Shown in pieces: positions 16,374 through 58,212 of a stretch of 64,000 bases of DNA. The position numbers and the translations under genes were made by a program. The notes under the pieces are model-generated. The model was not told the DNA's origin. It saw only the letters and a program-made list of their open reading frames with translations, and made no database searches. Location of the stretch: contig JAIXWR010000023.1 in NCBI GenBank assembly GCA_027491155.1, positions 1-64,000 on the forward strand, given 5' to 3'. The DNA comes from Verrucomicrobiaceae bacterium. Its GTDB lineage: Bacteria; Verrucomicrobiota; Verrucomicrobiia; Verrucomicrobiales; Akkermansiaceae. How positions within the stretch are numbered: the first letter of the stretch is position 1; each line of letters opens with the position of its first letter.

Positions 16374-16384
16374 GCCATCTTGCT

Positions 16385-39803: not shown

Positions 39804-39819
39804 GGACGGCGGTGGTGGA

Positions 39820-40749
39820 TCATGGCTGGTGCCGGAGCGGCAGGACGGGCTGGGTGCGCAGTGTCAGGGTGATGTTGTCGGCGTGGACGGCGCCGAAGTC
39901 CTCCATCGGCTCGTTGCGTCGGGCGCCGATCTGAATGACGGCGAAGTCGGCTTCGTCGGGGAGCACGCAGCGGGTTCTGATGGTCTGCCATGGCAGGTCC
40001 GTGCCGCCGGTGGAGTCGGTGAGCCTGGCGCCGGTGGCGAGGGCTTCGGAAGCCGCGGCCGGCCAGCGCCGCGGCATGTCCGCAGGGTTTCCGCTGAAGA
40101 GGAAGAGCTGGCAGATGAAGGTGATGGAAGGCGAGCCAGGCGGCCGTGCATCGCCCATGTCGGCGGTCAATTCCAGCGAGGCTTCGTGTCCGGCGGGTGT
40201 CAGGCGGCGCAGCGGGCGCAGGTCCACCAACTGGAAGACGTCGCAGGAGATGGCGCGGCCGTCCGGCGTGTTGGGATCCGGCGCGGGCCGCACGAAGCGC
40301 AGCACGTTGCGGCGGTCGGCTTCATCGAGCCTGACAGTCTCCGCGGGGTCGCCGCTCCATGCTCCATCGGTGCCGGGGAAGCCGGAGCCGAGAGGTCCGC
40401 TTTCGAAGCTGCCGTCAAGCAGGCCGTGGACGGGCGTCGCAGCTGCCAGCGGAGGAGAGGACATCTGCCCCCACACGAGGGTGGCGGTGAACAGACCGGC
40501 AACGAGACCGGCGGCGGCAGCGCTGAGCGCGGGCCACTGCACCTTCCGAGGACCCGAAGACGTCAACCCGGCGGACGATTCAGGCCTGCGGTGGCCTGAC
40601 AGGGCGGCGTCGAGGTGCAGGTGGCGGAGAAAGGCGCGGCGGGAGCCCGGATCTTGCCCGAGCTCCGCTTCGAGGGTGGCGATCTCTTCCGCATCGGCGC
40701 TGCCGTTCAGGTAACGGGAGGCCAGTTGGTGCAGGTCTTCTTCCTTCAT
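39820..40749 (-). CDS. Membrane anti-sigma-like protein with beta-sandwich ectodomain
   Basis: A 309-residue protein. About 1-52 is a short helical domain of the kind that starts PVC anti-sigma/FecR-like proteins (LHQLASRYLNGSADAEEIATLE, RRAFLRHLHLDAAL). One transmembrane helix lies at 72-94, and about 105-309 is outside the membrane. The ectodomain (LLDGSFESGPLGSG, then ADNITLTLR at the end) looks like a jelly-roll, carbohydrate-binding-like fold. Its start overlaps the ECF sigma stop (ATGA, 40746-40749), the standard arrangement for a sigma and its partner. I infer that the ectodomain senses a glycan or envelope state and frees the sigma factor. Confidence 0.78.
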   Translation of the reverse strand: MKEEDLHQLASRYLNGSADAEEIATLEAELGQDPGSRRAFLRHLHLDAALSGHRRPESSAGLTSSGPRKVQWPALSAAAAGLVAGLFTATLVWGQMSSPPLAAATPVHGLLDGSFESGPLGSGFPGTDGAWSGDPAETVRLDEADRRNVLRFVRPAPDPNTPDGRAISCDVFQLVDLRPLRRLTPAGHEASLELTADMGDARPPGSPSITFICQLFLFSGNPADMPRRWPAAASEALATGARLTDSTGGTDLPWQTIRTRCVLPDEADFAVIQIGARRNEPMEDFGAVHADNITLTLRTQPVLPLRHQP

Positions 40750-41384: not shown

Positions 41385-43082
41385 TCACGGGAAACCGAGG
41401 ATCTGCCCGTCGGCCAGCAGGCGCTCGCGGAGCTTCGGGTATGCGACTTCCTGGACGGAACTCCCGGCGGCGATCGCGAGGGCGGCGGCGGTGCCGGCGC
41501 TTTGTCCGAGGATCATGAACACCGGTTCCATGCGGATCGAGCCGAAGGCGACGTGCGAGGCGGAGAGGCTGACGGGGACGAGCAGGTTCACGCACTCGGA
41601 GGATTCCGGCACGATGGAACGGTAGGAAACGGGGTAGGGCCCTTTGCAGGGGTGGCCGAAGCCGCCTTCGTTGCGGACGGTCATGACGCCGTTCTCCTCG
41701 ACCGCGACGCGCTGGCAGAAGTGGGAATCCATCGCATAGGAGGCCAGGCCGACGGAGTCCTGCGCGACGCGTTTCCCTTCGCAGTCGGACTGGGTCATCA
41801 CGTAAGCGGAGACCATGCGGCGGCCTTCGCGGACGTAGAGCTGGTGCGGCCAGTGGCCGCTGTCCTTGAACTCGGCCGGATCGAGGCCGAAGCCCGCGGC
41901 GCGGCGGCGCAGTTCCTCCGGCACCTGCGGGTCGTTGGCGAGGAAGAACATCAGGCCCTGCTGATAGGCGACGTGATCCTGGAAGATCTTCTCGCGGAGT
42001 TCATAGAGCCCGGGCAGCGGCACGGGCAGGCCGCGGCGGGGAGGCGGGAGTTCGGAGAAGTTCACCGGTTCGAAAGTGCCGTCCGGCCAGCGGTGGCTGC
42101 CGTCGACGAGGTCGGAGGAGAAGCTGCCGGCATTGTTCGAGTCGCCGTTGCGCATCTGCACCGGGCCGTCGGTCATGGGACGGGTGGTGTAGTTCAGCGT
42201 CCATTTCACGCGGGGGTCGAAGTTGAGGAAGCGGGCGAGCAGGGCGTAGCGGCCGGGGTCGTAGCCGGCGGGCTTGGGAAAGGGGATGCGGTCCGGTTTG
42301 TTCGAGAGGATCATCCGGAAGTTGTAAGCCTGGACGCGGAAGTCTCCTTCGCCCGGCACGCCGGGCCGGTGCGGCGAGATTTCCGGCAGCAGGCCGGACG
42401 CGGGATCGCCGGGCGTGCGGTAGGGGCTGATGGGCAGGCCGCAGAACTGATAGACGCCTTTCCACGAGACCTGCTGCCACTGGCCGGCGAGGCTTTCGCC
42501 GTAGGTCCCGCGCGGCTCGCGACCGACGTGATGGGAGACCTTCGCCGCGGCGAGGAGATCGCCTTCATAGGTCGCGTCGATGAACATCGCGGCCTTTACG
42601 GTGAGTCCGGTCGTCATCGTCGCTGAGACGATGCGGTTGCCTTCCATCGCGACCGATTCGAGCGGCTGGTCGTGCAGGACCGTCACCCCGGCTTCGCGGA
42701 GCAGGTCGTGGTAGAGTTTTTCGGCGGAGACCGAGCTGAAGTCCAGCAGCCCGCCGACGCGTTGGTAGAACTCGCGCGCCAGGCCACCGATGGTGTCCTT
42801 GTTGCCGAGGTCGGTGGCGGTGAGTCCGCCGGAGGTGAGTCCGCCGACGTAGCGGTTGAACGAAAGCAGCGTTACCTTGCGCCCCATGCGCGCGGCCTGG
42901 ATCGCGGCGATCGATCCCGCGGAAGTGCCGCCGTAGACCGCGACCTCGCATTCGATCTCCCGGGCTTCCCGCTTTTCCACCGGCCGGTAATAGAATGGAG
43001 AGCCCGACGGCGCGGCGGCAAGGGCGGGCGGGGCGAGGCTCGCGAGCCCGAGCGCTGCGGAAGCGAGGAAGCGTGGGATCAT
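41385..43082 (-). CDS. Secreted FAD-dependent oxidoreductase (FAD_oxidored type)
   Basis: A 565-residue protein with a signal peptide (1-23). The dinucleotide-binding fold begins CEVAVYGGTSAGSIAAIQAARMG near 45-67, followed by VGGLTSGGLTATDLG and FIDATYEGDLLAAAKV. These are the hallmarks of the FAD-dependent oxidoreductase family often found beside sulfatases and xanthan-lyase-like genes in PVC bacteria and Bacteroidota. Export of a flavoprotein suggests Tat transport or periplasmic loading, although the signal has no twin arginine. It lies 18 bases after the sulfatase at 43101-44612. It probably oxidises a sugar, with the cytochrome fusion downstream as a possible electron acceptor. Substrate unknown. 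Confidence 0.88.
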   Translation of the reverse strand: MIPRFLASAALGLASLAPPALAAAPSGSPFYYRPVEKREAREIECEVAVYGGTSAGSIAAIQAARMGRKVTLLSFNRYVGGLTSGGLTATDLGNKDTIGGLAREFYQRVGGLLDFSSVSAEKLYHDLLREAGVTVLHDQPLESVAMEGNRIVSATMTTGLTVKAAMFIDATYEGDLLAAAKVSHHVGREPRGTYGESLAGQWQQVSWKGVYQFCGLPISPYRTPGDPASGLLPEISPHRPGVPGEGDFRVQAYNFRMILSNKPDRIPFPKPAGYDPGRYALLARFLNFDPRVKWTLNYTTRPMTDGPVQMRNGDSNNAGSFSSDLVDGSHRWPDGTFEPVNFSELPPPRRGLPVPLPGLYELREKIFQDHVAYQQGLMFFLANDPQVPEELRRRAAGFGLDPAEFKDSGHWPHQLYVREGRRMVSAYVMTQSDCEGKRVAQDSVGLASYAMDSHFCQRVAVEENGVMTVRNEGGFGHPCKGPYPVSYRSIVPESSECVNLLVPVSLSASHVAFGSIRMEPVFMILGQSAGTAAALAIAAGSSVQEVAYPKLRERLLADGQILGFP

Positions 43083-43100
43083 CGGAGGATGGGCAGTGGA

Positions 43101-44612: not shown

Positions 44613-44622
44613 GGCGCGCATG

Positions 44623-45633
44623 TCACGGGGTGGACAGGAGCTTCACCAGATAGGCCGTGGCATTCGGGAAGGCGGGATCCGGGATGCCGGGGTGGACGAG
44701 TTCGCAGCCGATCCCGATCTTGCGGCAGTGCTGCTGCAAGCCGACGCCGAAGTTGGCCGAGTGGGTGGGATCCTTTTCGTTCCGGCCCATCGCGGGCGGC
44801 TTCGGATAGAAGAGGGCCACCGGCGGGTCACCGGCACCGGCCAGCGCGTAGGGCGAATACTCCGCGATCCATGGCAGCAACCGTTCCCGTTCGGCGAGCG
44901 CCTGGGCGAAGCTTCCGAGGCCCCAGGCGTGGGCACCGTAGCGGCTGTTAGGGATCCATTCCTTCGCCTGGGCGGGATCGAGCGTGGTCTGCGCGCCGAC
45001 CACCGCGGCTCCCTTGAGACGGGTGGACTGGCGGGCGACGGGGTCCGTGCTTTTCGGGTCGGCGAGATCGTCGTGATAGGCAAGCCACAGGCTGGTGCAG
45101 GCCCCGGCGGATCCTCCGGCGGCGGCAATGCGGGCGGGATCGATGTTCCAGTCCGCGGACTTGCTGCGGAGGAACTGCAGCGCGCGCGCGGCGTCGTGCA
45201 TCGGGGCTTTCACCGGCGGCACGACTCCATCTTCGCGGGCCTGTGCCATCAGGCGGTAGTTGATGGCCGCCACCGAGATGCCGGCGTCGAGCAGCGTCTT
45301 CACGTCGACGGAGCGGGTGACCCGTTCCTTGCTGCCGGACGACCAGCCGCCGCCGTGGATGACCAGGACGAGCGGTGCCGGCTTGGCGGACTTGGCTTGC
45401 CAGAAGTCGAGCACGTTGCGGGCGTGAGGTCCGTACTTCACTTCGGTCTTCGAGGGTTTTGGAACGCCGGCGTCGTAGGCCTCCGCGGCGGGCTTGGGGG
45501 CTTTCGCCTTCGCGCGGGGTGCCTTTTTCGGAGCCGTCTCCGGTTCGGCGAAGGCGGGCGTGGCGTGGAGGCAGAGAGCGGCGATCGAAAGCAGGAGGAA
45601 CGAAGGGATGGGTTTCATGCGGATGGGCTTCAT
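44623..45633 (-). CDS. Secreted alpha/beta-hydrolase (esterase/lipase, HGGGW type)
   Basis: A 336-residue secreted esterase. ATG 45633 overlaps the upstream sulfatase stop (ATGA, 45630-45633); a second ATG at 45618 is also possible before the signal sequence. A Lys/Ala/Pro-rich linker follows. The oxyanion-hole motif VIHGGGWSSGSKE lies near 90 and the nucleophile motif GGSAGACTSLW near 170, both of the hormone-sensitive-lipase-like family. A His-containing block near the end (GIGCELVHPGIPDPAF) may supply the catalytic base. It is sandwiched between sulfatases, suggesting that it removes acetyl or other acyl groups that block desulfation. Substrate inferred from context only. Confidence 0.85.
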   Translation of the reverse strand: MKPIRMKPIPSFLLLSIAALCLHATPAFAEPETAPKKAPRAKAKAPKPAAEAYDAGVPKPSKTEVKYGPHARNVLDFWQAKSAKPAPLVLVIHGGGWSSGSKERVTRSVDVKTLLDAGISVAAINYRLMAQAREDGVVPPVKAPMHDAARALQFLRSKSADWNIDPARIAAAGGSAGACTSLWLAYHDDLADPKSTDPVARQSTRLKGAAVVGAQTTLDPAQAKEWIPNSRYGAHAWGLGSFAQALAERERLLPWIAEYSPYALAGAGDPPVALFYPKPPAMGRNEKDPTHSANFGVGLQQHCRKIGIGCELVHPGIPDPAFPNATAYLVKLLSTP

Positions 45634-47063
45634 TGGGTGGTGATTCGGGTTTTCCGGACCGGTGCGATCGTTCCGGGGGCGAGCTTTCGCATTTCCGCGA
45701 GCTTGGCGGCATGCTCCGGCTTGCCCGCGAGGTTCGTCCATTCGTGCGGATCCGCCGCGAGGTCGTAGAGTTCCTCGCCGCCGTCGCGGTAGTGGATGTA
45801 GCGCCAGCTTTCCGTGCTGATCGCGTAGTTCTCAGGGTGGTCGAGATGGGTGATGGCGGCATGCGGCCATTCCGCGGCGGGATCGCGCAGCAGAGGCACC
45901 AGGCTGCGGTTCCCTGCGTCCGCTTTGGGCGGCAGGCCGCACAAGTCAGTGAGCGTGCGGAAGAGATCGACCAAGGACACCGGCCGGTCGCAGACGCTGC
46001 CGGGCCGCGTTCCTTCGGGCAGCCCGGGCACGCCTTCGGGGACGCGGAGGATCAGCGGGACGCGGCCGCTCAGCCGCCACGGCGTGAATTTCTGCCAGTG
46101 CTCCTTTTCGCCGAGATGCCAGCCGTGGTCGCTCCACAGCACGACGATCGTGTTGTCGCGGTGCGGGCTCCTTTCCAATTCGTCCAGCACGCGGCCGACC
46201 ATCGCATCGGCGTAATGGATCGAGGCGAGGTAGGCCTGGATGCCGCGCTCCCATTGCTTGTGTTCGAGGATGTGCGGGAAGTAGCGGTTGCGGGCGATGC
46301 GTTTGCCTTCGGCCGGGACGTCGTCGAGGTCGTTCTCCTTGAAGCCGGGGCCGGGCCGGATGGATTCGAGCGGGAAGGGTTCGAAGTACTTCGCAGGGAC
46401 GAACCACGGTTCGTGCGGCCGGTAGATGCCGCACGCGAGGAAGAAGGGCTTGTCGCGCGGCTGCTGGAGCTGCTTGCCGATCCATTCCGTGACGCGCCAG
46501 TCGCCGCCGAATTCCTCGTCGCTCATTTCGAGCGCGGCCCAGTCGGTTTCCCGGTATTGCCACGGGCCGCCAAGAGCAAGGCTGATCGGCCGGTTCGGCG
46601 GGTTGAAGGTCGGCGGGAAGGGATTGTCCTTGGCCTTGTCCGGGTAGTAGTCGTCCCAGCTTTGGGGATCGATCACGTAGTGGAGCAGCTTTCCCGATCC
46701 GGCGGACCAGTAGCCCTGCCGGGAAAGATAACGGGGAAGCAGCTCCTGGTCGGGCAGGACGTCCCGGAGCTTCTGCGTGTTCTGATAGAGTCCCGAGCGG
46801 TGCGGCGGCAGGCCGGTGAAGACGGCGGTGCGGGAAGGATTGCAGGAGGGCGCCGCGCAGTAGGCGTTGCGGAAGAGGACGCCGCTGGCAGCGAAGCGGT
46901 CGAGGTTCGGGGTCTTCGTCAACGGATGGCCGCCAAGGCAGCCGATCCAGTCGTTGAGGTCGTCCAGGGCGATGAACAGGACATTGGGCTTCCGCCCGGC
47001 GGCATTCGCAGGAGGAAGGATCAGGAGGCAGGAAGCCAGGGTCGCGAGCGGGAGCAGCTTCAT
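45630..47063 (-). CDS. Secreted sulfatase (CNPSR), iduronate-2-sulfatase-like
   Basis: A 477-residue sulfatase with signal peptide (1-22). The metal site starts NVLFIALDDLNDWIGCLGG, the pattern of iduronate-2-sulfatase-like enzymes, and CNPSRTAVFTG has Cys 74. SAGSGKLLHY takes the place of the GKWHLG block and ACGIYRPHEPWFVP and VVLWSDHGWHLGEKEHW are also typical of that branch. The start is ATG 47063 (MKLLPLATLAS), with 47072 possible. It lies 16 bases after the next sulfatase upstream and is coupled to the esterase downstream by a 4-bp overlap. Substrate prediction (2-O-sulfated uronic acid) is by similarity only. Confidence 0.93.
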   Translation of the reverse strand: MKLLPLATLASCLLILPPANAAGRKPNVLFIALDDLNDWIGCLGGHPLTKTPNLDRFAASGVLFRNAYCAAPSCNPSRTAVFTGLPPHRSGLYQNTQKLRDVLPDQELLPRYLSRQGYWSAGSGKLLHYVIDPQSWDDYYPDKAKDNPFPPTFNPPNRPISLALGGPWQYRETDWAALEMSDEEFGGDWRVTEWIGKQLQQPRDKPFFLACGIYRPHEPWFVPAKYFEPFPLESIRPGPGFKENDLDDVPAEGKRIARNRYFPHILEHKQWERGIQAYLASIHYADAMVGRVLDELERSPHRDNTIVVLWSDHGWHLGEKEHWQKFTPWRLSGRVPLILRVPEGVPGLPEGTRPGSVCDRPVSLVDLFRTLTDLCGLPPKADAGNRSLVPLLRDPAAEWPHAAITHLDHPENYAISTESWRYIHYRDGGEELYDLAADPHEWTNLAGKPEHAAKLAEMRKLAPGTIAPVRKTRITTQ

Positions 47064-47079
47064 GGCAAGCATGACCAGG

Positions 47080-48648: not shown

Positions 48649-48667
48649 CGGCGGGCGCGGTGTTCGG

Positions 48668-49558
48668 TCACGGCACGGCGACCAGCTTTTCGCCGGAGGC
48701 GGGCGTCTTCAGGGTGGGCTCGCCTTCGAGCAGGCCGTGCTTCACGAGGAAACGGTCCGCTTCGATGATGGTGACGCTGCGCCAAGGGTCCTGGTTGAAG
48801 AAGCCGTGCTTTTGTCCTTTGGCGATGTGGAGCTCGATGCCCTTCGTGCCGGCTTGTTTCCATTTCCGGTGGGCGGCATCCCAGCCGGGCTTCCATTCGT
48901 CCTGGTCGCCGAAGAACACGATGGCCGGTGCGAGGTCCGGCTTGATGCAGGTGAGGATGTCGATCTTCGGATCCGTGTGGTCGTCGGGCGAGAAGGCGGG
49001 GTTGAACCAGAGGTAGGCGACCACGCGGGTGTCGATGTCCTTCGGATCGGCGGGATCGTCGAGGCCGGTGCCGAGGGTGGCCAGCGCGCTGATGTGGCCG
49101 CCCGCGCTGCCGCCGCCGGTGATGATGCGCTGCGGATCGATGCCGAGCTTGCCGGAGTTCTGCTTGAACCAGCGGATCGCGCTGCGGGCGTCGGTGACGC
49201 AAACGCGCTTCTTCGATTCGCCTGCGGGAAGCTTCGCGGAGGCTTTGCCGAGCATCTGGTATTCGGCCGTGGCGCAGACAAGCCCGCGGCTGGCGAAGTA
49301 GGCGCAGGCGGCGCGGAACTGGGCGAGCGATCCGCCGGACCAGCCGCCGCCGTGGAAGAGGATCATGCCGGGAACCTTCGCCTTCGAGGGATCGTGACCG
49401 GGCGGGAAGTAGAGTTCCATCCGCCGCTCCTTGCCGGCGGAGGTCTTGTAAACCCGCGACTCCCCGGCCGGGCCGGCGAAGCCGCCGTCGCGATCGGCGG
49501 CAAGGGCGGGAACGAAGGGGGCCAGCAGGCAGAGGAGCAGGAGACGTCGTGTTTTCAT
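48668..49558 (-). CDS. Secreted alpha/beta-hydrolase (esterase, HGGGW type)
   Basis: A 296-residue secreted esterase with signal peptide (1-20). ILFHGGGWSGGSL near 70 forms the oxyanion hole, GGGSAGGHISAL near 145 carries the Ser nucleophile, FFGDQDEW the Asp and KGQKHGFFNQDPW the His. All four parts are intact, in the hormone-sensitive-lipase/acetylesterase style. It starts 35 bases after one sulfatase and ends 19 bases before the next. It is shorter than the other cluster esterase (44623-45633) and lacks its Lys/Pro linker, so the two need not act on the same bond. Deacetylation of a glycan is the likely role. Confidence 0.88.
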   Translation of the reverse strand: MKTRRLLLLCLLAPFVPALAADRDGGFAGPAGESRVYKTSAGKERRMELYFPPGHDPSKAKVPGMILFHGGGWSGGSLAQFRAACAYFASRGLVCATAEYQMLGKASAKLPAGESKKRVCVTDARSAIRWFKQNSGKLGIDPQRIITGGGSAGGHISALATLGTGLDDPADPKDIDTRVVAYLWFNPAFSPDDHTDPKIDILTCIKPDLAPAIVFFGDQDEWKPGWDAAHRKWKQAGTKGIELHIAKGQKHGFFNQDPWRSVTIIEADRFLVKHGLLEGEPTLKTPASGEKLVAVP

Positions 49559-49593
49559 CGGAGGATTCCGGTATGGAAGGAGTTCGCGTGCGA

Positions 49594-51090
49594 TCAGGAT
49601 CCCGCGAGGCGCGGGGCGGAGTGGCCTTGCTCGCGGATCTTCTTCAGCAGGGCCTTGAGTTCCTTCACGCGTTCCGGGTGATCGGCGGCGACATTGTGCT
49701 TCTGTCCGAGATCGGTCTTGAGGTTGTAGAGTTCCACCGGGGCTTTCCCGTCGGGCTGGTAGCCGCGGCGGGCTTCCCACTCCTTGTCGGCGCCGGAAAC
49801 GTAACCGTTGGGCGCATCGATCAGCAGCCAGTCGCCGTGGCGGATGGCGTAGCCTTTCGGGTTGGTGTTGTGGACATGGGTGTCGCGCACCGATGCGGTT
49901 TCGCCTTTGAGCAAGGGGAGGAGATCGTGCGAATCTTCGGCGGCGTCGCGAGGCAAGGCGTGGCCGAGCGCGGAGGCGATGGTGGCCATGAAGTCGATCT
50001 GCGAGACGAGCGCGGGGCTGACCGTGCCGGGCTTGGTGACGCCGGGCCACTTGATGAGGGTGGGCACGCGGTGGCCGCCTTCGTAGATGTCCCGCTTCAA
50101 GCCGCGCAGGGGATGGGCCGACCAGTGGCCGGTCTTCTTGTCGCGGGGGTAGGCGTATTTCTCCGGGCCGTTGTCGGCGGAGAAGATGACGACGGTGTTT
50201 TCCGCCTGGCCCGAGTCTTCGAGCGCCTTGAGGAGCTGGCCGACCGAGTCGTCGGTCTCCACCACGAAGTCGCCGTAGGGGCCCGCCTGCGATTTGCCGT
50301 CGAAAGCATCGTTCGGAATGACCGGCGCGTGGGGCGAGGGATAGGCGAAGTAGAGGAAGAAGGGCTTTCCCGCGGCCTTCCGCGCCTTGATGTATTCGAC
50401 GCCGCGGCGGGTGGTTTCGGGCAGGTTCTGGTAGGGATCCCAGCCGCTGACCATGGGGCCCGGGCGGCACTCCCAGTTGCCTTCCTTGATCGGCTTCCAC
50501 TTCGCGGTGTCCATCATCGTGTCGGGCGCCTGGAGGACCTTGTCGTTCTCGATCCAGCAGTAGGGCGGGAAGTTGATGACCTCGTCGCCGAAGGCGTAGT
50601 CGAAGCCGTGGGCGTTGGGGCCGTCGGGGATGGCTTTCGACCAGTCGAAGTCGCCGGGCTGGATGCCCTTCTTCTTGCTGCCCGGCTTGCGGATGGCGTC
50701 CCAATCGCGCCCGAGGTGCCACTTGCCGATCGTCGCGGTGTCATAGCCCCGGGACTTCAGCATCTCGGGCAGCGTGAGGCGCTCGGGCTTGAAGACCGAG
50801 CCGCCGAAGGCGTCGACGATGCCATGGAAATCCCGCCAGTGGTGGCGGCCGGTGAGCATTGCGTAGCGGGACGGCGTGCAGATGCCCGATGAGCTGTGGG
50901 CATCGGTGAATCGCATCCCCTGGGAGGCGAGCTTGTCGAGATGGGGCGTCGGGATTTTCGACTCCGGATTGAAGCAGCCGAGGTCGCCGTAGCCGAGGTC
51001 GTCGGCGTAGAGGAGCAGGATGTTAGGCTTCTCCGCGGCGCGGAGGAACGTGGCGGAAAGCAGCAGGAGCAGGGAGATCGCGGGTTTCAT
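49594..51090 (-). CDS. Secreted sulfatase (CTPSR), arylsulfatase A-like
   Basis: A 498-residue sulfatase with signal peptide (1-19). NILLLYADDLGYGDLGCFNP opens the metal site, CTPSRYAMLTGRHHWR has Cys 71, TIGKWHLGRDW carries the Lys and His, and VIFSADNGPEKYAYPRDK the second metal site. It resembles the sulfatase at 47080-48648 in order and wording of blocks, most strongly up to residue 100. It starts 20 bases after the end of the sulfatase at 51111-52547. No extra domain is present. Confidence 0.94.
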   Translation of the reverse strand: MKPAISLLLLLSATFLRAAEKPNILLLYADDLGYGDLGCFNPESKIPTPHLDKLASQGMRFTDAHSSSGICTPSRYAMLTGRHHWRDFHGIVDAFGGSVFKPERLTLPEMLKSRGYDTATIGKWHLGRDWDAIRKPGSKKKGIQPGDFDWSKAIPDGPNAHGFDYAFGDEVINFPPYCWIENDKVLQAPDTMMDTAKWKPIKEGNWECRPGPMVSGWDPYQNLPETTRRGVEYIKARKAAGKPFFLYFAYPSPHAPVIPNDAFDGKSQAGPYGDFVVETDDSVGQLLKALEDSGQAENTVVIFSADNGPEKYAYPRDKKTGHWSAHPLRGLKRDIYEGGHRVPTLIKWPGVTKPGTVSPALVSQIDFMATIASALGHALPRDAAEDSHDLLPLLKGETASVRDTHVHNTNPKGYAIRHGDWLLIDAPNGYVSGADKEWEARRGYQPDGKAPVELYNLKTDLGQKHNVAADHPERVKELKALLKKIREQGHSAPRLAGS

Positions 51091-51110
51091 GGGTGGCCGG
51101 GGGAAAAGGT

Positions 51111-52547
51111 TCAGCGGGCGTCCTTGGCAGGCTTGGGTTGCGGGGCTTTCGCGGGCTTGCGGCGGCCTTCGGCGGGGTAGAGGTATTCCGGCTTCGCGAC
51201 CTTCCCGGCGGGGCGGCGGGCGGCGGGCTTGTTGCCGCCGATCTCGGCCATGATGCTTTCGCCGAGCGAGGCCAGTTCCTTGACGACTTCGGGATGCTGC
51301 GCCGCGACGTTCGTTTTCTCGCCGATCTCGCGGTCGAGATGATAGAGGCGCGGCTCGCGGGTCTTCGCGTCGGGAAGCGCATCGCGTCCCATCGTTTCGT
51401 TCTGCGGTGCGATGGCGAGTTTCCACGGTCCCTTGCGCACGGCCTGCAGGTTGTAGCCGGAGAAATAGTAATGCACGCCCCGCGGGGACTCCTTGGACTT
51501 GCCGAGGAGGAGCGGCGAGAGGTCGCGGCCGTCGATGACCGGATCGGCGGGCAGCGTTCCGCCCGCGATCGAGACCGCGGTGGGAAGGAGGTCGATGGTG
51601 CCGGCGATGGCGTCCGCCGAGGAACCGGCGGCGATCTTGCCCGGCCACCAGGCGAGGGTCGGCACGCGGACGCCGCCTTCCCAAGTGCTGCCCTTGCCGC
51701 CGCGCAGCGGGCCGGAGCTGCCGCTGTCCGCGCCCTTGACCAGCCACGGGCCGTTGTCGCTGGTGAAGACGACCAGCGTGTTTTCCGCGAGCTTGAGTTC
51801 GCGAAGGGTGTCGAGCACGCGGCCGGTGGACCAGTCCACTTCCTCGATCCAGTCGCCGACGCGGCCGTTGGAGGATTTGCCGCGGAACTTCTCGCCCGGA
51901 TAGATCGGCGTGTGGATGGCGGTGTGGGGGAGATACAGGAAGAAAGGCTTGTCCTTGTTCGCGGTGATGAAGCGGACGGCCTCGTCGGTGTAGCGCTCGA
52001 CGATCCGCCTTTGCTGTTCGTCGGTGAGCAGCTCGGCCACCTTGTCGTCGCGCAGCAGTGGCGTCACCCTTTGCCCGGTCGCGGTCGACTTGAGCTGCAT
52101 GTCGTTCGAGTAGGGGATGCCGAAGTAGCCGTCGAAGCCCTGCCGGGTGGGAAGGAACTCCGGCTGGTCGCCGACGTGCCACTTGCCGATGCACATCGTG
52201 GCGTAGCCGAGGTCCTTGAGTCGCTCGGCGATGGTGACTTCCTTGGGGTTCAGGCCGTGGCCGCTGCCGGGTCCGTAGACCGCCGGCACGTCGACGCGCA
52301 CGCCGTAGCAGCCGGTGAGGAGCTGGGCGCGGGAAACCGAGCAAACGGGTGCGGCGTAGAACGAGGTGAGCTTCATGCCTTCCGCCGCCATCCGGTCGAG
52401 ATGGGGCGTCTTCTGTTTCGTCGCGCCATAGCATCCGAGGTCGCCGTAGCCCATGTCGTCCATGAAGATGATCACGACGTTCGGTTTCGCGGCGGCGAGC
52501 ATCGCTGTGCCAATCAGGGTGAAGAGGGAGGCGATCGATCGTTTCAT
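51111..52547 (-). CDS. Secreted sulfatase with variant maturation motif CSVSR
   Basis: A 478-residue sulfatase with signal peptide (1-20). NVVIIFMDDMGYGDLGCYGA is a normal metal-site start and CIGKWHVGDQPEF a normal Lys/His block, and VVFTSDNGPWLVKG closes the site. The maturation motif at 52329-52343 (Cys 69) is C-S-V-S-R, with Val where Pro is usual. The Cys, Ser and Arg are kept, so it is probably still converted. The Lys/Pro/Ala-rich tail (KPAKAPQPKPAKDAR) recalls other members of the cluster. It starts 80 bases after the upstream sulfatase. Confidence 0.9.
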   Translation of the reverse strand: MKRSIASLFTLIGTAMLAAAKPNVVIIFMDDMGYGDLGCYGATKQKTPHLDRMAAEGMKLTSFYAAPVCSVSRAQLLTGCYGVRVDVPAVYGPGSGHGLNPKEVTIAERLKDLGYATMCIGKWHVGDQPEFLPTRQGFDGYFGIPYSNDMQLKSTATGQRVTPLLRDDKVAELLTDEQQRRIVERYTDEAVRFITANKDKPFFLYLPHTAIHTPIYPGEKFRGKSSNGRVGDWIEEVDWSTGRVLDTLRELKLAENTLVVFTSDNGPWLVKGADSGSSGPLRGGKGSTWEGGVRVPTLAWWPGKIAAGSSADAIAGTIDLLPTAVSIAGGTLPADPVIDGRDLSPLLLGKSKESPRGVHYYFSGYNLQAVRKGPWKLAIAPQNETMGRDALPDAKTREPRLYHLDREIGEKTNVAAQHPEVVKELASLGESIMAEIGGNKPAARRPAGKVAKPEYLYPAEGRRKPAKAPQPKPAKDAR

Positions 52548-52627
52548 GGGAATCGGTTCAGGCTAGCGGGACGGGTCCGGGTTGGAAGGCGTTTCATCGA
52601 TGGCGGCGTTCCGGCAGAGGCGGGAGG

Positions 52628-54091
52628 TCAGGGTTTTGCGGATCGCTTGCCCGCCTTGCGCCGTTTCTTCGCGTCCACGGGCGATGCCGCCGTTTCGCGC
52701 GCCTTGGCTTCGGCCGCCGCGTCGAAGCGGGGGTTCGGCTCCGCCGGCCTTTTCGCGCCGATTCCGTCCTGCCAGCGGTGGAGCTCACCCAGCAGCTCGT
52801 CGCGCTTGGCCGGCATTGCGTCGGCGAGATTGTGCCGTTCGCCGATGTCCTCCTTGAGGTTGTAGAGCGCGATGTGTCCGTCCTCGTAGTATTCCTTCAG
52901 CTTGTAGTCGCCGACGCGGACCGCCGCGACGGGGCGGGAGCGGAACAGGGGGTCGCGCTGCTCGGTCGTGTTGCTATAACTTTCAAGATAAGCCGGGAAG
53001 TGCCAGAAGAGCGGCCGTCGGCCCAAGGTTTCGGTTTCACCGCGCAGCAAGGGCAGGAGGCTGCGGCCGTCGACCGGCTGGTCGGGAAGGGGCGCGCCGG
53101 CGATGGCGCAGAAGGTCGGAAAGAGATCGAGTCCGATCACCGGTTCGCCCGAGCGCTTTCCCGGAGCGACCACGCCTGGCCAGTGCACGAAGAGCGGAAC
53201 GCGGATGCCGCCTTCGAAAAAGGTGCCCTTGTATCCCCAGAGCGGCGCCATGTCGGTGACGGGGCCGTAGCCGCCGTTGTCGGAAGAAAACACGATCACC
53301 GTCCGGTCGAGTTCGCCAAGTCGTTCGAGTTCGGAAACCAGCCGGCCCACGCTGTCGTCCACGGCCTGGATCATCGTGGCCATGACGACATCATGGTGCA
53401 GCTTGCCGGGCTTCTTCGCTTCGTATTTGGGCAGCAGGTCCTTCTTCGCCTGGAGCGGCGTGTGGACGCCGAAGTGGGCGAGGTAGGCGCACCACGGTTG
53501 GTCCCGGCTTTCCCCGATGAAGCGGAGGGTGCGGTCGGTGAGGGCGTCGGCGAGGTAGGTTCCGTCGGGCAGCAGGTGGCCCGATTTCGTGATCTGGCCG
53601 TATTCGACGGCGACGTCGAACCCTTGCGTGAGCGGGCTCTTGCCGAGGTGCCATTTGCCGAACATCCCGGTGCGGTAGCCGGCGCCCTTGAGGACTTCGG
53701 CCCAGGTCACGATGCCCGGATCGAGGTCGCTGGTGCCGGGCTCGACCATCAGGCGGCGGTGGGCGGCCTGGCCGCGCGGCTTGGTGCCGACGTTGTAGAT
53801 CCGGTGGCGCGGGCCGTATTGGCCGCTGAGCAGGGACGCCCGCGATGGTGCGCAATTGGCGGCGTTCGAGTAGGCGTCGGTGAAGACGAGGCCCTTCGCC
53901 GCGAGGGCGTCGAGATGGGGCGTTTCGTAGAAGTCCGATCCCATGAAGCCGGCATCCTTCCAGCCGAAATCATCGAGGAAGATGAAGAGGATGTTCGGCT
54001 TCGTCGGAGGCTCTTGCGGGCTTCCGTGGCAAGGCACCGCGACCAGCAGGGCCACGGCGATCAGGATCAGGCGTCGCATTGTGAACCTCAT
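52628..54091 (-). CDS. Secreted sulfatase (CAPSR)
   Basis: A 487-residue sulfatase with signal peptide (about 1-24). NILFIFLDDFGWKDAGFMGS opens the metal site; the DFGW/KDAGFMG wording is shared with the sulfatase at 55463-56821. CAPSRASLLSGQYG has Cys 80, MFGKWHLGKSP the Lys and His, and VFSSDNGGYGPVTD the second metal site. The start overlaps the stop of the upstream sulfatase (ATGA, 54088-54091), so the two are coupled; a second ATG lies at 54079. The last 35 residues are Ala/Lys/Arg-rich. Substrate not predicted. Confidence 0.93.
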   Translation of the reverse strand: MRFTMRRLILIAVALLVAVPCHGSPQEPPTKPNILFIFLDDFGWKDAGFMGSDFYETPHLDALAAKGLVFTDAYSNAANCAPSRASLLSGQYGPRHRIYNVGTKPRGQAAHRRLMVEPGTSDLDPGIVTWAEVLKGAGYRTGMFGKWHLGKSPLTQGFDVAVEYGQITKSGHLLPDGTYLADALTDRTLRFIGESRDQPWCAYLAHFGVHTPLQAKKDLLPKYEAKKPGKLHHDVVMATMIQAVDDSVGRLVSELERLGELDRTVIVFSSDNGGYGPVTDMAPLWGYKGTFFEGGIRVPLFVHWPGVVAPGKRSGEPVIGLDLFPTFCAIAGAPLPDQPVDGRSLLPLLRGETETLGRRPLFWHFPAYLESYSNTTEQRDPLFRSRPVAAVRVGDYKLKEYYEDGHIALYNLKEDIGERHNLADAMPAKRDELLGELHRWQDGIGAKRPAEPNPRFDAAAEAKARETAASPVDAKKRRKAGKRSAKP

Positions 54092-55431
54092 TTCGTATCG
54101 AGCGCCGGGTTGGGGAAGACCGGCGACACCTTGCGGTGTTCTTTCATCCGCTTCATCATCGCGGCCACGCGCTCCGGTTCGCGCGCGGCGAGGTCGTCGG
54201 ACTCCGCCAGGTCGCGCCCGAGGTGGAAGAGCATGGGTTTCCCCTGGGCCTTCACGTCGTATTGCACCAGCTTCCAGTCGCCCTGCCGCAGCGCGCGGCG
54301 GGTGCCTTGCTCGTGGAATTCCCAGTAGAGGAAATCGTGCACGCGCTGCTCGCCCCGGCCGGTGAGGGTGGGCGCGTAGGAAATGCCGTCAAGGCCGGCG
54401 GGCGACTCGATGCCCGCGAGATCGCAGGCGGTGGGCAAGAAGTCCCAGAAGGCGCCGACGTGGTCGCTGGGGCCGGGCTTGGCGATCCCGGCGGGCCAAT
54501 GGGCGATCATCGGGACGCGGATGCCGCCTTCGAAGAGGTCGCGCTTGCCGCCGCGCAACGGGCCGGAGGAGTTTAACATCTTAGGGTCGTATCCGCCTTC
54601 GAAGTGCGAACCGTTGTCGCTGGTGAAGAGCAGCAGGGTGTCGCGCGCCACGCCTTTCTTTTCGAGGGCGGCGATCAAGCGGCCGACGTAGGAGTCGAGC
54701 GCCTCGACCATCGCGCGGTAATGGGCGGCCGGCTGTTTGACCGGCGTGTAATGGGCTTTTCCGGGCTTCATGCCGGCACCTCCCGGGACGGATCCTTCCG
54801 GCCCCAGCACGGCGGCATGGGGGATGGGATAGGAAAGGAGCAGGAAGAAGGGGCCTTCCGACTCGCCGATGAAGCGCTCGGCGCGCGCGGTGTAGAGCTC
54901 GGCATCATACGACTTCCCGCGGTGGAGCTCGTTGCCCTCGAGGTCGACCCGGCGGTCCTGGTCGTAGATGAAGCGGGGGTAACGGTGATGGCCGTCGGTG
55001 TGGTTGGTGGTGCCGTAGAACACGTCGAAGCCCTTCTCGAGGACGCGCGCGGGGTTCTGCGTGTTGCCGGAGACGCAGGACTTGCCGATCATGGCGGTGC
55101 GGTAGCCGGCGCGCTTCAGCAAGGTGGCGACGGTGAGGTCCTGCGGATCGGGTCGCAGTTCCTGGGGCCCGTTGCCGCGCAGCCAGGTGCTGCCGGTGTC
55201 CAGGCCGGTCATCAGGGCGCTGCGCGACGGGGCGCAGACCGTGGAGCCCGAGTAGTGCTGGGTGAAGCGGATGCCGCCGGCCGCGAGCTTGTCGAGCACC
55301 GGTGTTTGGATCGTCTTCTGGCCGTAGCAGCCGAGGTCGCCGTAGCCGAGGTCGTCGGCGATGACGAAGATGATGTTCGGCTTGGCCGCGGCCAGACCGC
55401 CGGCGAGCAGGAAGAGAAGGATGGCGCGCAT
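54088..55431 (-). CDS. Secreted sulfatase (CAPSR) with altered GKWHLG block
   Basis: A 447-residue sulfatase with signal peptide (1-15). NIIFVIADDLGYGDLGCYGQ and CAPSRSALMTG (Cys 66) are standard, and LLFTSDNGSHFEGGYD closes the metal site. Where nearly all relatives have GKWHLG, this protein reads MIGKSCVSGNTQNP: the Lys is kept but Trp and His are lost. A His nearby (GTTNHTDGHHRYP) might replace it. It begins 31 bases after the upstream sulfatase and is coupled downstream by a 4-bp overlap. It is probably active on a substrate with a different sulfate environment, though this is inference. Confidence 0.9.
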   Translation of the reverse strand: MRAILLFLLAGGLAAAKPNIIFVIADDLGYGDLGCYGQKTIQTPVLDKLAAGGIRFTQHYSGSTVCAPSRSALMTGLDTGSTWLRGNGPQELRPDPQDLTVATLLKRAGYRTAMIGKSCVSGNTQNPARVLEKGFDVFYGTTNHTDGHHRYPRFIYDQDRRVDLEGNELHRGKSYDAELYTARAERFIGESEGPFFLLLSYPIPHAAVLGPEGSVPGGAGMKPGKAHYTPVKQPAAHYRAMVEALDSYVGRLIAALEKKGVARDTLLLFTSDNGSHFEGGYDPKMLNSSGPLRGGKRDLFEGGIRVPMIAHWPAGIAKPGPSDHVGAFWDFLPTACDLAGIESPAGLDGISYAPTLTGRGEQRVHDFLYWEFHEQGTRRALRQGDWKLVQYDVKAQGKPMLFHLGRDLAESDDLAAREPERVAAMMKRMKEHRKVSPVFPNPALDTK

Positions 55432-55462
55432 GGGTTTCAGGAAAACGGGTCGGCTTGCAGGT

Positions 55463-56821
55463 TCACTTCGAGGCGACGGGATGCCACGCCTCGATCTTCT
55501 TGCGAAGCTGTTCGACGATGTCGGGATGTTTGGAAGAGAGCTCGTTCTTTTCGTCCGGGTCTTCCTTGAGGTTGTAGAGTCGGACCGGCTGCACGTCCCA
55601 GACGTGGATGTTCCGGTATTCGGTGGTGTCCTCGCCCTTGTGGCGGACCAGCAGTTTCCAGTCGCCTGAAATGCACCACAGGTACTGGAGCGTGGCGTCG
55701 GGCCGGCCCGGGCTCATGTTGTGAACCGAGTGGCAGACGCCGAAGACGGTGTCGCGCTTCTGCCGTGCTTGTGGATCGAGCAGGTTGATCCCGGGCAAGT
55801 CAGCGGGTGCCTGGATGCCGGTGGCGGCGGCGATGGTGGGAAAGAGGTCGACCGCATGGGCGAGGTCGGGAGAACGGCCGGGCTCCAAGCGGCCGGGCCA
55901 CGAGAGAAGGATCGGCGTGCGGATGCCCGTTTCAAAGGGCGAGCTTTTCGTGCGGAGCGAGTAGCCTTTCCAGAGCTTCTGGTTCGGGTCGGCGGCGTTG
56001 GTGCTGGTGGCGGCCCAGCCGTTGTCGCAGATGTAAACGACGAGGGTGTTCTCGCGCAGGCCCCGGCGGTCGAGGTGGTCTAACAGCTCGCCGCAGGTCT
56101 CGTCGAACCACTCGCACATCGCGAAGTAGCGGGCGACGTCGTCGGCCCGGCCCGGGGCGCGGTATCTTTCGAGCAGCCGCTGCGGGGGATCGTGGGGCGT
56201 GTGGGGCAGGAAGGGCGCATACCACACGAGGAAGGGCTTCTTCTCGCGGGTGGCGAGGTCGATGAAATCGGTGACGGGCTTCATGCCCGTGCGGCCGATG
56301 ACCAGCCCCGCGTCGCCGTGGCGTCCGCCGCGCTTCGGATCGCCGTGGGTCATGCCGTGGGTGAAGCCGCCGTCCTTGAAGGAGCCCTCCCACCACTTGC
56401 CCGACTGGTGGGCGAGGTAGCCGTCGGCGGTCAGCCCGCGGATGAATCCCGGCATCTTGTTGAAGGCTTCCTGCAGCGGCAGATCGAGGGCCGGGCGGTT
56501 GTTTCTGCCATCCACGTCGTTGCCCGCGATGCCGTGGTCGAAGGGATAGCGGCCGGTCACCATCGACGCGAGCGAAGGGCGGCAGAGCGGTGCGGCGACG
56601 TAGCCGCGCTCGAAGACGACGCTTTGCCCCGCCAGCTTGTCGAGGTGGGGCGTCTTGATGTCCTTGTGCCCCATGAAACCGTAATCCTTCCAGCCCTGGT
56701 CGTCGGAGAGGATGATGACGACGTTGGGTCGTTCCGCGGCCGGCAAGAGGCCGGGGATGCCGAGGGCGAGGAGCAGGATCAGGAAGAGGCGCGGGAATCC
56801 CGCGGGTTGGGAGGTCTTCAT
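55463..56821 (-). CDS. Secreted sulfatase-like protein with CRPSL motif
   Basis: A 452-residue sulfatase-family protein with signal peptide (1-29). NVVIILSDDQGWKDYGFMGH gives the first metal ligands. The maturation site (56570-56584, Cys 80) is C-R-P-S-L: the final Arg is replaced by Leu. The sulfate-contact block is also changed, from GKWHLG to SGKWWEGSF, losing the His. VVYICDNGWAATST supplies the second metal site with Asn in the DN position. The protein is otherwise full length. It may be a divergent sulfatase branch or a catalytically changed member. Its ATG overlaps the upstream sulfatase stop by four bases. Confidence 0.85.
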   Translation of the reverse strand: MKTSQPAGFPRLFLILLLALGIPGLLPAAERPNVVIILSDDQGWKDYGFMGHKDIKTPHLDKLAGQSVVFERGYVAAPLCRPSLASMVTGRYPFDHGIAGNDVDGRNNRPALDLPLQEAFNKMPGFIRGLTADGYLAHQSGKWWEGSFKDGGFTHGMTHGDPKRGGRHGDAGLVIGRTGMKPVTDFIDLATREKKPFLVWYAPFLPHTPHDPPQRLLERYRAPGRADDVARYFAMCEWFDETCGELLDHLDRRGLRENTLVVYICDNGWAATSTNAADPNQKLWKGYSLRTKSSPFETGIRTPILLSWPGRLEPGRSPDLAHAVDLFPTIAAATGIQAPADLPGINLLDPQARQKRDTVFGVCHSVHNMSPGRPDATLQYLWCISGDWKLLVRHKGEDTTEYRNIHVWDVQPVRLYNLKEDPDEKNELSSKHPDIVEQLRKKIEAWHPVASK

Positions 56822-58212
56822 CGGGTGCCGGGTTTGGGGGTCTTTTTCTTCGGGTTTCCGGCTGGCTTGTCCCAGGCCACCGGTGCTTCGTTTCTCTGGG
56901 GTTCTCCCGGCGTGCTGCGGCCGCCGGCGACTTGCTTCCGCATCAGGGTGGCGAGGCGTTCGACGATTTCCGGCCGTTCGGCGGCGAGGTCCTTGGTTTC
57001 GCCGGGGTCGGATTCCAGTTCGTAAAGCTCGCGTTTGCCTTTGGCGGTGAACACGAGCTTCCACGGTCCCTGGCGGATGGCGAGGTCGCGTTTCGGCGAT
57101 TGATGGATGATGGCTTCGCGCGTGCTGTTCTTCGCGCTGCCGAGGAGGACGGGAAGGAGGCTCACGCTGTCCTCGCCCGCGTTGGCGGGGAGTTTCGTGC
57201 CGACGATCTCCGCGGCGGTGGCCATCAGGTCGTTGAGGCAGATGGTCGCGTCCGACACGGAGCCGGGTTGGATTCTTCCCGGCCAACGGGCGAGGAAGGG
57301 CACGCGGTGGCCGCCTTCGTGAATGCTGGACTTCGAACCGCGCAGCGGCGGGTAGGGGCGATTCGCGGCCCCGTTGTCGGCGGTGGCGATGACCAGCGTG
57401 TTCGAGGCAAGGCCCTTGCGTTCGAGGGCGTCGAGGAGCTGGCCGAGCATGTGGTCGCCCTGGTGCAGCCAGTCGCCGTAGCTTGCTTCTTTTCCGGTGA
57501 CCCCGCCCTTGCCGGTGAATTCCGGCGCGGGCACGACCGGCGTGTGGGGCGGGCACATCGGGAAGTAGAGGAAGAAGGGCTTGGCGGCATCGCGCCCGCC
57601 GATCCACTCGACCGCCTTGGCGATCATGCGCGGTTGGTTCTCCACTTCGGCGACGTTCTCGACGACGCGGTCCTGCTCGATGATCGTGCCGATGTTGCGG
57701 GCGTGGGTGAAGCCGTGGAAGAAATCGAAGCCGGCGGCGTTCGGGGGGGTGAGCAGGCGTGTGCCGACGGGGATCGACTTCTCGGTGCCGGGCTTGCCGT
57801 CCCACTTCATGCCGAGGTGCCATTTGCCGATGCAGGCGGTCTCGTAGCCATGCTGCTGGAGCAGGGAGGCGACGGTGAGCCGGTTCTTGGGAATGATCGG
57901 CGGCGAGTAGGTGGTGAGAACGCCGTATTGGCCGATGCGGAAGGGGTAGCGGCCGGTCAGCAGGCCGTAGCGGGTGGGCGTGCAGACCGAGGCCGCGGTG
58001 TGGGCATCGGTAAAGCGCATGCCTTCCGCCGCGAGCCGGTCGAGGTTCGGGGTCTTGAAGGGCGAGTCCTTGCGGTAGCAGCCCGGCTCGCCGTAGCCCA
58101 GGTCGTCGAAGAGGACGAGGACGATGTTGGGCGGCGTGGCATCGTCCGCCCGGGCCTGGGCGGCGAGGAAAGGCAGGAGGCCGGCGGCGAGGCGGAGGGC
58201 TCGGAGAACCAT
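56818..58212 (-). CDS. Secreted sulfatase with CTPTR motif, first gene of the minus-strand run
   Basis: A 464-residue sulfatase with signal peptide (1-22). NIVLVLFDDLGYGEPGCYRK opens the metal site and the motif at 57970-57984 (Cys 77) is C-T-P-T-R, with Thr in the Ser position. CIGKWHLGMKWDG and VIATADNGAANRPYPP are normal. It is the most upstream gene of eighteen consecutive minus-strand genes, so the region 58213-58342 should contain a promoter; a divergent DUF808 gene starts at 58343. ATG 58212 gives the signal peptide; the frame remains open upstream without one. The tail is Lys/Pro-rich (GNPKKKTPKPGTR). Confidence 0.92.
   Translation of the reverse strand: MVLRALRLAAGLLPFLAAQARADDATPPNIVLVLFDDLGYGEPGCYRKDSPFKTPNLDRLAAEGMRFTDAHTAASVCTPTRYGLLTGRYPFRIGQYGVLTTYSPPIIPKNRLTVASLLQQHGYETACIGKWHLGMKWDGKPGTEKSIPVGTRLLTPPNAAGFDFFHGFTHARNIGTIIEQDRVVENVAEVENQPRMIAKAVEWIGGRDAAKPFFLYFPMCPPHTPVVPAPEFTGKGGVTGKEASYGDWLHQGDHMLGQLLDALERKGLASNTLVIATADNGAANRPYPPLRGSKSSIHEGGHRVPFLARWPGRIQPGSVSDATICLNDLMATAAEIVGTKLPANAGEDSVSLLPVLLGSAKNSTREAIIHQSPKRDLAIRQGPWKLVFTAKGKRELYELESDPGETKDLAAERPEIVERLATLMRKQVAGGRSTPGEPQRNEAPVAWDKPAGNPKKKTPKPGTR

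What the first reader, a model, noticed from the sequence alone, without database searches (positions are those of the whole stretch)
41385..58212. Single-strand run of nine sulfatases, two esterases and a flavoprotein in one apparent operon
Twelve consecutive minus-strand genes, all with signal peptides, are spaced by 10-80 bases or joined by ATGA overlaps (56818-56821, 54088-54091, 45630-45633). The nine sulfatases differ clearly from each other, which suggests nine positions or linkages on a complex sulfated glycan, with HGGGW esterases removing acyl groups in between. No SusC/D, transporter or sulfatase maturase is encoded in the window. PVC bacteria are known to carry many sulfatases; this exact gene order I do not recognise.
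Basis: partly seen in the sequence, partly recalled or inferred. Interest (0 to 1): 0.75.

Follow-up and report, generated by a model that had tools for sequence, protein, structure and literature searches.

The report
Nine-sulfatase gene run in a Verrucomicrobiota
A bacterium of the Verrucomicrobiota carries nine different sulfatase-family genes in one unbroken run, and much of the same set turns up in shuffled order in two related genomes, so they probably work together on one sulfated sugar polymer; it is an unusually large example of a known kind of gene cluster.

Summary
Twelve consecutive minus-strand genes (41385-58212) encode nine PF00884 sulfatases, two BD-FAE esterases and an FAD oxidoreductase, -4 to 80 bases apart. 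It is the longest same-strand sulfatase run in a genome with about 62 sulfatases (next: 3).

No maturase lies in the window, but the genome has an FGE-like gene elsewhere and no anSME above cut-off.

The exact order was not seen elsewhere, but the set recurs: genome G220 has orthologues (68-83%) of 8 of the 12 genes in one shuffled 11-sulfatase run; G006 has 5 of 12. The adjoining DUF808-rpoD-dnaG block occurs without the cluster in relatives.

Best reading: an accessory, recombining desulfation module for one heterogeneous, probably galacto-configured sulfated glycan. Substrate and co-transcription are inferred. Reshuffled multi-sulfatase clusters are already described in PVC bacteria.

Oddest part: g11 has leucine where 99% of sulfatases have a catalytic arginine; all 13 clade members read share this. 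Published work suggests such proteins may be inactive; their conservation suggests a function.

The parts
56818..58212 (-). g12 sulfatase, first gene of the run; motif CTPTR; S1_15-like
   Evidence: PF00884 174 bits; best solved relative 7oze, 227 bits, titled BT1624-S1_15
55463..56821 (-). g11 sulfatase-fold protein with CRPSL instead of CxPxR and GKWW instead of GKWH
   Evidence: PF00884 138 bits; motif conserved in its clade; model pLDDT 73.6, pTM 0.80, nearest folds S1_16/S1_19
54088..55431 (-). g10 sulfatase, CAPSR; nearest solved relative 7an1 (S1_20 by recall)
   Evidence: PF00884 189 bits; 287 bits to 7an1
52628..54091 (-). g9 sulfatase, CAPSR; S1_16-like; start 54091 or 54079
   Evidence: PF00884 178 bits; 333 bits to 9fo1, an S1_16 kappa-carrageenan sulfatase
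51111..52547 (-). g8 sulfatase with CSVSR (Pro to Val), arylsulfatase A-like
   Evidence: PF00884 199 bits; 267 bits to human ARSA 1e1z; V or A at that position in 9 of 9 relatives at 59% or more
49594..51090 (-). g7 sulfatase, CTPSR; S1_15-like
   Evidence: PF00884 191 bits; 298 bits to 9s7x, 277 to 7oze
48668..49558 (-). g6 BD-FAE type esterase with HGGGW
   Evidence: PF20434 66 bits
47080..48648 (-). g5 sulfatase, CSPSR; S1_15-like
   Evidence: PF00884 168 bits; 255 bits to 7oze
45630..47063 (-). g4 sulfatase, CNPSR; nearest solved relative 6hhm (S1_7 by recall)
   Evidence: PF00884 167 bits; 168 bits to 6hhm
44623..45633 (-). g3 BD-FAE type esterase with HGGGW
   Evidence: PF20434 77 bits
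43101..44621 (-). g2 sulfatase, CTPSR; no close solved relative
   Evidence: PF00884 128 bits; best 103 bits to 5g2v
41385..43082 (-). g1 FAD-dependent oxidoreductase
   Evidence: PF12831 319 bits
40746..41279 (-). ECF sigma factor of the Rhodopirellula/Verrucomicrobium family, same strand, 105 bases after g1
   Evidence: TIGR02989 157 bits, cut-off 124.6; start placed
39820..40749 (-). partner gene of the sigma factor, ATGA overlap, no family; possible anti-sigma (inference)
37992..39803 (-). double SGNH/GDSL esterase
   Evidence: PF13472, two stretches, 172 bits
35935..37932 (-). secreted protein of no known family; candidate depolymerase (inference)
   Evidence: no Pfam match, no credible solved relative with a 10-row profile; in G161 a 73% relative lies beside sulfatases
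34751..35914 (-). GH99/WbsX-like protein
   Evidence: PF16317 79 bits, PF14307 51 bits
31727..34678 (-). GDSL + DUF7133 + cytochrome c protein, last gene of the same-strand run
30188..31720 (+). tenth sulfatase, opposite strand; 81% relative near g10/g11 relatives in G329, 65% relative near the 35935 gene's relative in G161
   Evidence: PF00884 107 bits
58213..58363 (.). 151-base divergent gap between g12 and a DUF808 gene; likely promoter region (inference)
   Evidence: no sigma-70-like site found

Best explanation
The run is an accessory, probably polycistronic module for stripping sulfate (and acyl groups) from one structurally mixed sulfated glycan. Nine exported sulfatase-family proteins of at least six different sequence groups, matured by a formylglycine-generating enzyme encoded on another contig, would remove sulfates from different positions; two BD-FAE esterases would remove acyl esters; the FAD enzyme may oxidise a released sugar. 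Chain cutting would come from elsewhere, possibly from the downstream same-strand genes (an unassigned secreted protein and a GH99-like protein) controlled by the adjacent ECF sigma factor. The nearest solved relatives of g5, g7, g12 (S1_15), g9 (S1_16) and g10 (S1_20) remove 6-, 4- and 3-sulfate from galactose or N-acetylgalactosamine, so a galacto-configured glycan is my best guess. Shown: gene content, spacing, recurrence of the set, FGE-like gene. Inferred: co-transcription, substrate, location of action, role of the downstream genes.
For: Nine sulfatases plus two esterases in close one-strand order. The set recurs: G220 has one-strand orthologues of g2, g4, g5, g6, g7, g10, g11, g12 (68-83%) in 19.4 kb with 11 sulfatases, one esterase and one pectate-lyase-like protein; G006 has g2, g5, g7, g10, g12 (69-83%) in 12.5 kb with one more sulfatase and three other genes. 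Best-hit check against 62 own sulfatases: 7 of 11 G220 and 5 of 6 G006 cluster sulfatases point back to this run at 68% or more; under random draw P = 2.1e-5 (or 5.7e-7 for 7 of 8 one-to-one partners) and 1.1e-4. The conserved DUF808-rpoD-dnaG block lacks the cluster in G009 and G002, and DUF808-dnaG in G012, over about 30 kb. FGE-like gene: PF03781 264 bits with the sequence GGSFLCHDSYCMRYRPAAR and a lipobox-like start; anSME model only 49.8 bits against a cut-off of 349. Galacto-specific solved relatives: specificities from passages of PMC10154612.
Against: No transcription data. No GH or PL inside the twelve genes. g9 has no orthologue in either recurring cluster, g8 only a 48% relative in G220, g1 and g3 none in either. 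Fifteen of the 23 relatives' stretches I compared hold only one or no cluster gene at 60% or more, and all were picked because they hit one. In the named-genome scan only 4 of 23 loci hold a close g10 (78-82%); the other 19 (38-47%) sit mostly in unrelated surroundings, and one of the four is alone on a 6.8 kb contig. Subfamily labels rest on best PDB hits, not on SulfAtlas; specificity residues were not checked. The GH99-like gene would fit mannose better than galactose. The sigma-factor pair was not found near the cluster genes of relatives.
Confidence: 0.6

Rival explanations
1. Sulfatase gathering point without one substrate: recombination piles up unrelated sulfatase genes, each serving a different glycan, and selection acts on single genes.
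For: Order is not conserved and members are swapped between clusters. Passages of PMC4807772 describe high turnover and reshuffling of sulfatase clusters in Planctomycetes. Many relatives hold only one of the genes in another context.
Against: Seven of eleven and five of six cluster sulfatases of G220 and G006 point back to the same nine out of 62, more than random gathering would give; spacing is operon-like.
Confidence: 0.2
2. Sulfur scavenging: the run frees sulfate for growth from any available polymer and does not serve carbon use.
For: No GH or PL within the twelve genes. Passages of PMC5615132 name sulfated polysaccharides as a sulfur source as well as a carbon source for freshwater Verrucomicrobia.
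Against: No sulfate transport or assimilation family among the 40 of 44 window genes scanned; esterases and downstream GH-like genes point to polymer use.
Confidence: 0.1
3. Fucoidan or other methyl-pentose sulfated polymer, as in marine relatives.
For: Reported for marine Akkermansiaceae and Puniceicoccaceae (PMC8857213 passages; PMC13174399 first part). S1_15 members occur in such loci.
Against: No BMC shell gene in the genome although such genes are tied to fucose and rhamnose use; GH29 model finds only two partial matches of 46 and 39 bits. S1_17 and S1_25 were not tested directly; 6hr5 (an S1_25 entry by recall) was only the second hit of g2 at 94 bits.
Confidence: 0.07

Closest known systems
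Operon-like multi-sulfatase clusters of Planctomycetes (PMC4807772, passages read)
   Same: Co-oriented adjacent sulfatases that are unlike each other, resemble orthologues elsewhere more than each other, and change neighbours between genomes
   Different: Here nine (G220: eleven) sulfatases in one run in Verrucomicrobiota, and a large part of the set stays together in other genomes, whereas that paper found orthologues of adjacent sulfatases rarely adjacent in relatives
Sulfatase-rich PUL-like loci of marine Verrucomicrobiota (PMC8857213, passages read)
   Same: Mixed sulfatase subfamilies, among them S1_15, S1_16 and S1_7, gathered with hydrolases
   Different: Those were built around GH29 fucosidases; here no GH lies inside the twelve genes and no BMC gene was found in the genome
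Sulfatase genes beside pectin-lyase-like, LamG, GH and planctomycete cytochrome genes in freshwater Verrucomicrobia (PMC5615132, passages read)
   Same: GDSL/DUF7133/cytochrome c gene at the end of the same-strand run; pectate-lyase-like gene inside the G220 run
   Different: That paper's passages do not describe a run of this length
S1 sulfatases without the catalytic Arg (PMC5066984, passage read: 9 of 4058, Lentisphaerae and Planctomycetes, Ile or Leu, 'may be inactive')
   Same: g11 has Leu at that position
   Different: Here a conserved clade across several Verrucomicrobiota families, with further shared changes and, in several genomes, membership in sulfatase clusters
Bacteroidota polysaccharide utilisation loci (Sus-like)
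   Same: One-strand set of glycan-active enzymes next to an ECF sigma factor
   Different: No SusC/SusD match in the window genes scanned

Membership tests
S1 formylglycine sulfatases | PF00884 above its cut-off | tested here: met
   9 of 9, 128-199 bits against 25
S1 formylglycine sulfatases | Cys or Ser nucleophile | tested here: met
   Cys invariant in 9 of 9 and in the tenth sulfatase
S1 formylglycine sulfatases | C-x-[PA]-x-R with catalytic Arg | tested here: inconclusive
   Met by 7 of 9. g8 has CSVSR (Arg kept, Pro to Val). g11 has CRPSL (Arg lost), so for g11 this feature is not met
S1 formylglycine sulfatases | Metal ligands and other catalytic residues (two N-terminal Asp, Lys, His, D-N/H-G, Lys) | tested here: met
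   D40, D41, K142, H207, D266, G268 and K292 (g11 numbering) invariant in all ten. The GKxH histidine is present in g5, g7, g8, g9, g12 only (5 of 9)
S1 formylglycine sulfatases | A maturase in the genome | tested here: met
   FGE-like gene on contig 40; anSME model below cut-off. That it modifies these proteins is not tested
SulfAtlas subfamilies S1_15, S1_16, S1_20, S1_7 | Placement in the subfamily tree | not testable with these tools
   Only best PDB matches; the labels for 7an1 and 6hhm are recalled
PVC multi-sulfatase clusters | Co-oriented, mutually dissimilar, closer to orthologues elsewhere | tested here: met
   27-47% among themselves, 68-83% to orthologues for 7 of 9
PVC multi-sulfatase clusters | Reshuffled context between genomes | tested here: met
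Sus-like PUL | SusC/SusD pair | tested here: not met
   none in 40 of 44 window genes scanned; rest of genome not searched
Operon | One transcript | not testable with these tools
   spacing only; weak promoter/terminator scan

The most novel reading that the evidence does not exclude
The run is one instance of a portable desulfation cassette shared among Verrucomicrobiota that includes a functional but non-canonical member, g11: a sulfatase-fold protein with Cys-x-Pro-x-Leu that has lost the FGly-stabilising Arg, is kept intact across families of the phylum, and works either without the usual formylglycine chemistry or as a glycan-binding partner of the active sulfatases.
Probability: 0.2. Interest if true: 0.65.

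Novelty: new member of a known kind. Interest (0 to 1): 0.42.

Why it matters
If the set acts on one glycan, its members define the sulfation pattern of a polymer that is not yet identified, and the shared subset (g2, g5, g7, g10, g12 in all three clusters) is a short list for enzyme assays. The CxPxL clade offers a direct test of whether sulfatase-fold proteins without the catalytic Arg are dead, as published work suggested, or do something else.

Tried and rejected
Recent tandem duplication: rejected. With G220 and G006 rows included, the nine need nine separate label changes on the tree; with the genome's own rows only they need seven, because g5 and g7 are each other's closest paralogues (45%) and g12 is next (39%). 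So old duplication inside the S1_15-like group is possible, recent copying is not.

Recent foreign import judged by composition: not supported. GC is 66.7% in the run, as in the flanks, and tetranucleotide distances (0.112-0.140 for pieces wholly inside) lie at the low end of the neighbourhood (0.115-0.221 elsewhere). G220's cluster has G220's own GC (53% against 52% beside its dnaG). Exchange between lineages is suggested only by identity: cluster genes 68-83% to G220 against 55% for DnaG and 64% for polyphosphate kinase, two yardsticks. For G006 (69-83% against 79% and 92%) plain descent fits. In one search, 2 of 12 genomes gave no DnaG match at the threshold.

Gene 35935-37932 as a lyase: not shown. 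No Pfam family, no credible solved relative (best E 0.4). The single-sequence model is unusable (mean pLDDT 38); its helical first half and strand-rich second half are only a hint of a two-domain lyase. Relatives occur in 9 of 97 genomes, own included.

CxPxL proteins always in sulfatase clusters: rejected. In nine loci from eight genomes checked around them (window run left out), other sulfatases lie near in G400 and G435 only; further cases are the window, G220, G329 and G002.

Whole-cluster search by DNA: 386 genomes of the order. Empty-site check: G009 and G002 have DUF808, rpoD and dnaG; G012 DUF808 and dnaG but no recorded rpoD hit; G003 and G014 rpoD and dnaG only; G220 dnaG only; no cluster gene in any of the six.

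Habitat: my notes call G006 and G220 freshwater-lake genomes; no call shows this, and I do not rely on it. Papers: for PMC5615132, PMC8857213, PMC6388578, PMC4807772, PMC10154612 and PMC5066984 I saw passages; for PMC13174399 part 1 of 2 plus passages; others only as listings.
Full report
What is there. The window (64000 bases, 66% GC) lies on contig 2 of a 5.73 Mb genome in 46 contigs. Minus-strand genes g12 to g1, transcribed from 58212 to 41385, are nine PF00884 sulfatases, two BD-FAE esterases and an FAD oxidoreductase, with gaps of -4 to 80 bases. The three ATGA overlaps are real, one of them subject to start choice. The scan for terminator-like sites on the transcribed strand and for sigma-70-like promoters found none in 39700-58500, a weak test in such DNA. 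Upstream lies a divergent DUF808 gene, then rpoD and dnaG.

The run is longer than reported. After a 105-base gap an ECF sigma gene (TIGR02989, 157 bits) starts at 41279 and overlaps a gene of no known family by ATGA. Then follow, on the same strand, a double SGNH esterase, an unassigned secreted protein, a GH99/WbsX-like protein and a GDSL/DUF7133/cytochrome c protein ending at 31727. A tenth sulfatase lies on the other strand at 30188-31720.

How unusual. The genome has about 62 sulfatase domains; this run of nine is three times the next longest same-strand run. On a FastTree tree of the 62 plus 17 from G220 and G006, each of the nine needs its own label change. Seven of them (g2, g4, g5, g7, g10, g11, g12) group with G220 and, for five, G006 members at support 100. 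Within the genome itself g5 and g7 are nearest to each other at 45%. Several long branches meet elsewhere in that tree, so only the near groupings are used.

The set recurs. A DNA search of 386 genomes of the order found no listed match to another genome longer than one gene (capped list). Reading stretches around hits, G220 (contig 4, which matches record CAMDCV010000004.1 in length) holds a one-strand run of 11 sulfatases, an esterase and a pectate-lyase-like protein in 19.4 kb, with orthologues of g2, g4, g5, g6, g7, g10, g11 and g12 at 68-83%. G006 (contig 16, CAMCYK010000016.1) holds g2, g5, g7, g10 and g12 at 69-83% plus one more sulfatase, broken by three other genes. Of 23 relatives' stretches compared, chosen because they hit a cluster gene, 8 hold two or more cluster genes at 60% or more: G006, G220, G353 (g10, g1), G329 (g10, g11), G042 (g2, g8), G358 (g2, g10), G047 (g3, g5) and G024 (g3, g8, opposite strands). 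Eleven of the twelve genes, all but g9, appear in at least one such pair. Own-genome best hits point back to this run for 7 of 11 G220 and 5 of 6 G006 cluster sulfatases. A hypergeometric model gives 2.1e-5 (5.7e-7 on one-to-one partners) and 1.1e-4; it assumes every one of the 62 could have been found, which is generous.

Accessory nature. In G009 and G002 the DUF808-rpoD-dnaG block is present, and in G012 DUF808 and dnaG, without any cluster gene in about 30 kb on that side. Composition is native. Cluster genes are closer to G220 than DnaG and polyphosphate kinase are, which suggests old exchange, on two yardsticks only.

Maturation. The genome has a PF03781 protein of 264 bits whose end reads GGSFLCHDSYCMRYRPAAR...GFRC, like the cysteine pair of known FGEs (comparison from recall), with a lipobox-like signal. 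The anSME model reaches only 49.8 of 349 bits. All nine have Cys, which suits an FGE.

Substrate. Best solved relatives: g5 and g12 7oze (BT1624, S1_15); g7 9s7x, then 7oze; g9 9fo1 (S1_16); g10 7an1 (S1_20 by recall); g4 6hhm (S1_7 by recall); g8 human arylsulfatase A; g2 and g11 nothing close. Characterised S1_15, S1_16 and S1_20 enzymes act on 6-, 4- and 3-sulfated galactose or N-acetylgalactosamine (PMC10154612 passages). No BMC gene and two weak partial GH29 matches speak against a fucose-based polymer. Four GH16 genes lie elsewhere, one of them matched in two pieces, and a GH20 gene lies at 1724-3352. The galacto reading is therefore plausible, not shown.

The odd members. g8 has CSVSR; V or A replaces Pro in 9 of 9 relatives at 59% or more. 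g11 has CRPSL. In an alignment of 4058 sulfatases only eleven lacked the Arg; nine of these, with Ile or Leu, came from Lentisphaerae and Planctomycetes and were thought possibly inactive (PMC5066984). Here Leu is present in 13 of 13 clade members read: window, G220, G329, G002, two further own genes, and the match in each of seven other genomes of the phylum; the clade was found in 8 of 115 genomes of the phylum at E <= 1e-90, own included. GKWW or GKLW replaces GKWH in the 11 of 13 where it was read. The other catalytic residues are kept, and g11's model has the S1_16/S1_19 fold (pLDDT 73.6, TM about 0.71). Identity of 71-77% to the G220 and G329 copies argues for a kept function. Against a special link with sulfatase clusters: only 2 of 9 further loci have other sulfatases nearby.

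Comparison with what is known. Dissimilar, co-oriented, reshuffled sulfatase clusters were described in Planctomycetes (PMC4807772 passages), and sulfatase-rich Verrucomicrobiota loci in several papers. I did not see a described run of nine to eleven with a recurring set in the passages and listings, which is not proof that none is in print. I file this as a new, large member of a known kind.

Noticed in passing
window 55463-56821; own loci L151, L170; L177-L182, L191: Sulfatase-fold clade with Cys-x-Pro-x-Leu and GK[WL]W, conserved across families of the phylum.
   Followed up: partly
window 35935-37932; L130:8683-10692: Secreted 665-aa protein of no known family with a 73% relative in G161 beside a relative of the window's tenth sulfatase.
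   Followed up: partly
window 14193-17932 and 23437-24258: Polyphosphate genes close together: a gene that I take for polyphosphate kinase 1 (14193-16286, not scanned with Pfam), Ppx/GppA (16385-17932) and PPK2 (23437-24258).
   Followed up: no
window 26320-28806: MBOAT acyltransferase followed by an AlgX-like protein: a polysaccharide O-acetylation pair.
   Followed up: no
window 18130-23388: 1752-aa protein with CotH kinase, lamin-tail, chitobiase C-terminal and beta-helix domains.
   Followed up: no
window 8107-11133: Protein kinase with SLBB domain next to an ECF-type sigma factor.
   Followed up: no
window 11319-12011: Weak match, below cut-off (25.4 of 27.4 bits), to the PF07737 metalloprotease-like domain family.
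   Followed up: no
G000:C11:30-260 and G000:C30:30-260: Two near-identical partial sulfatase matches at the same position on two small contigs; probably a repeat that broke the assembly.
   Followed up: no
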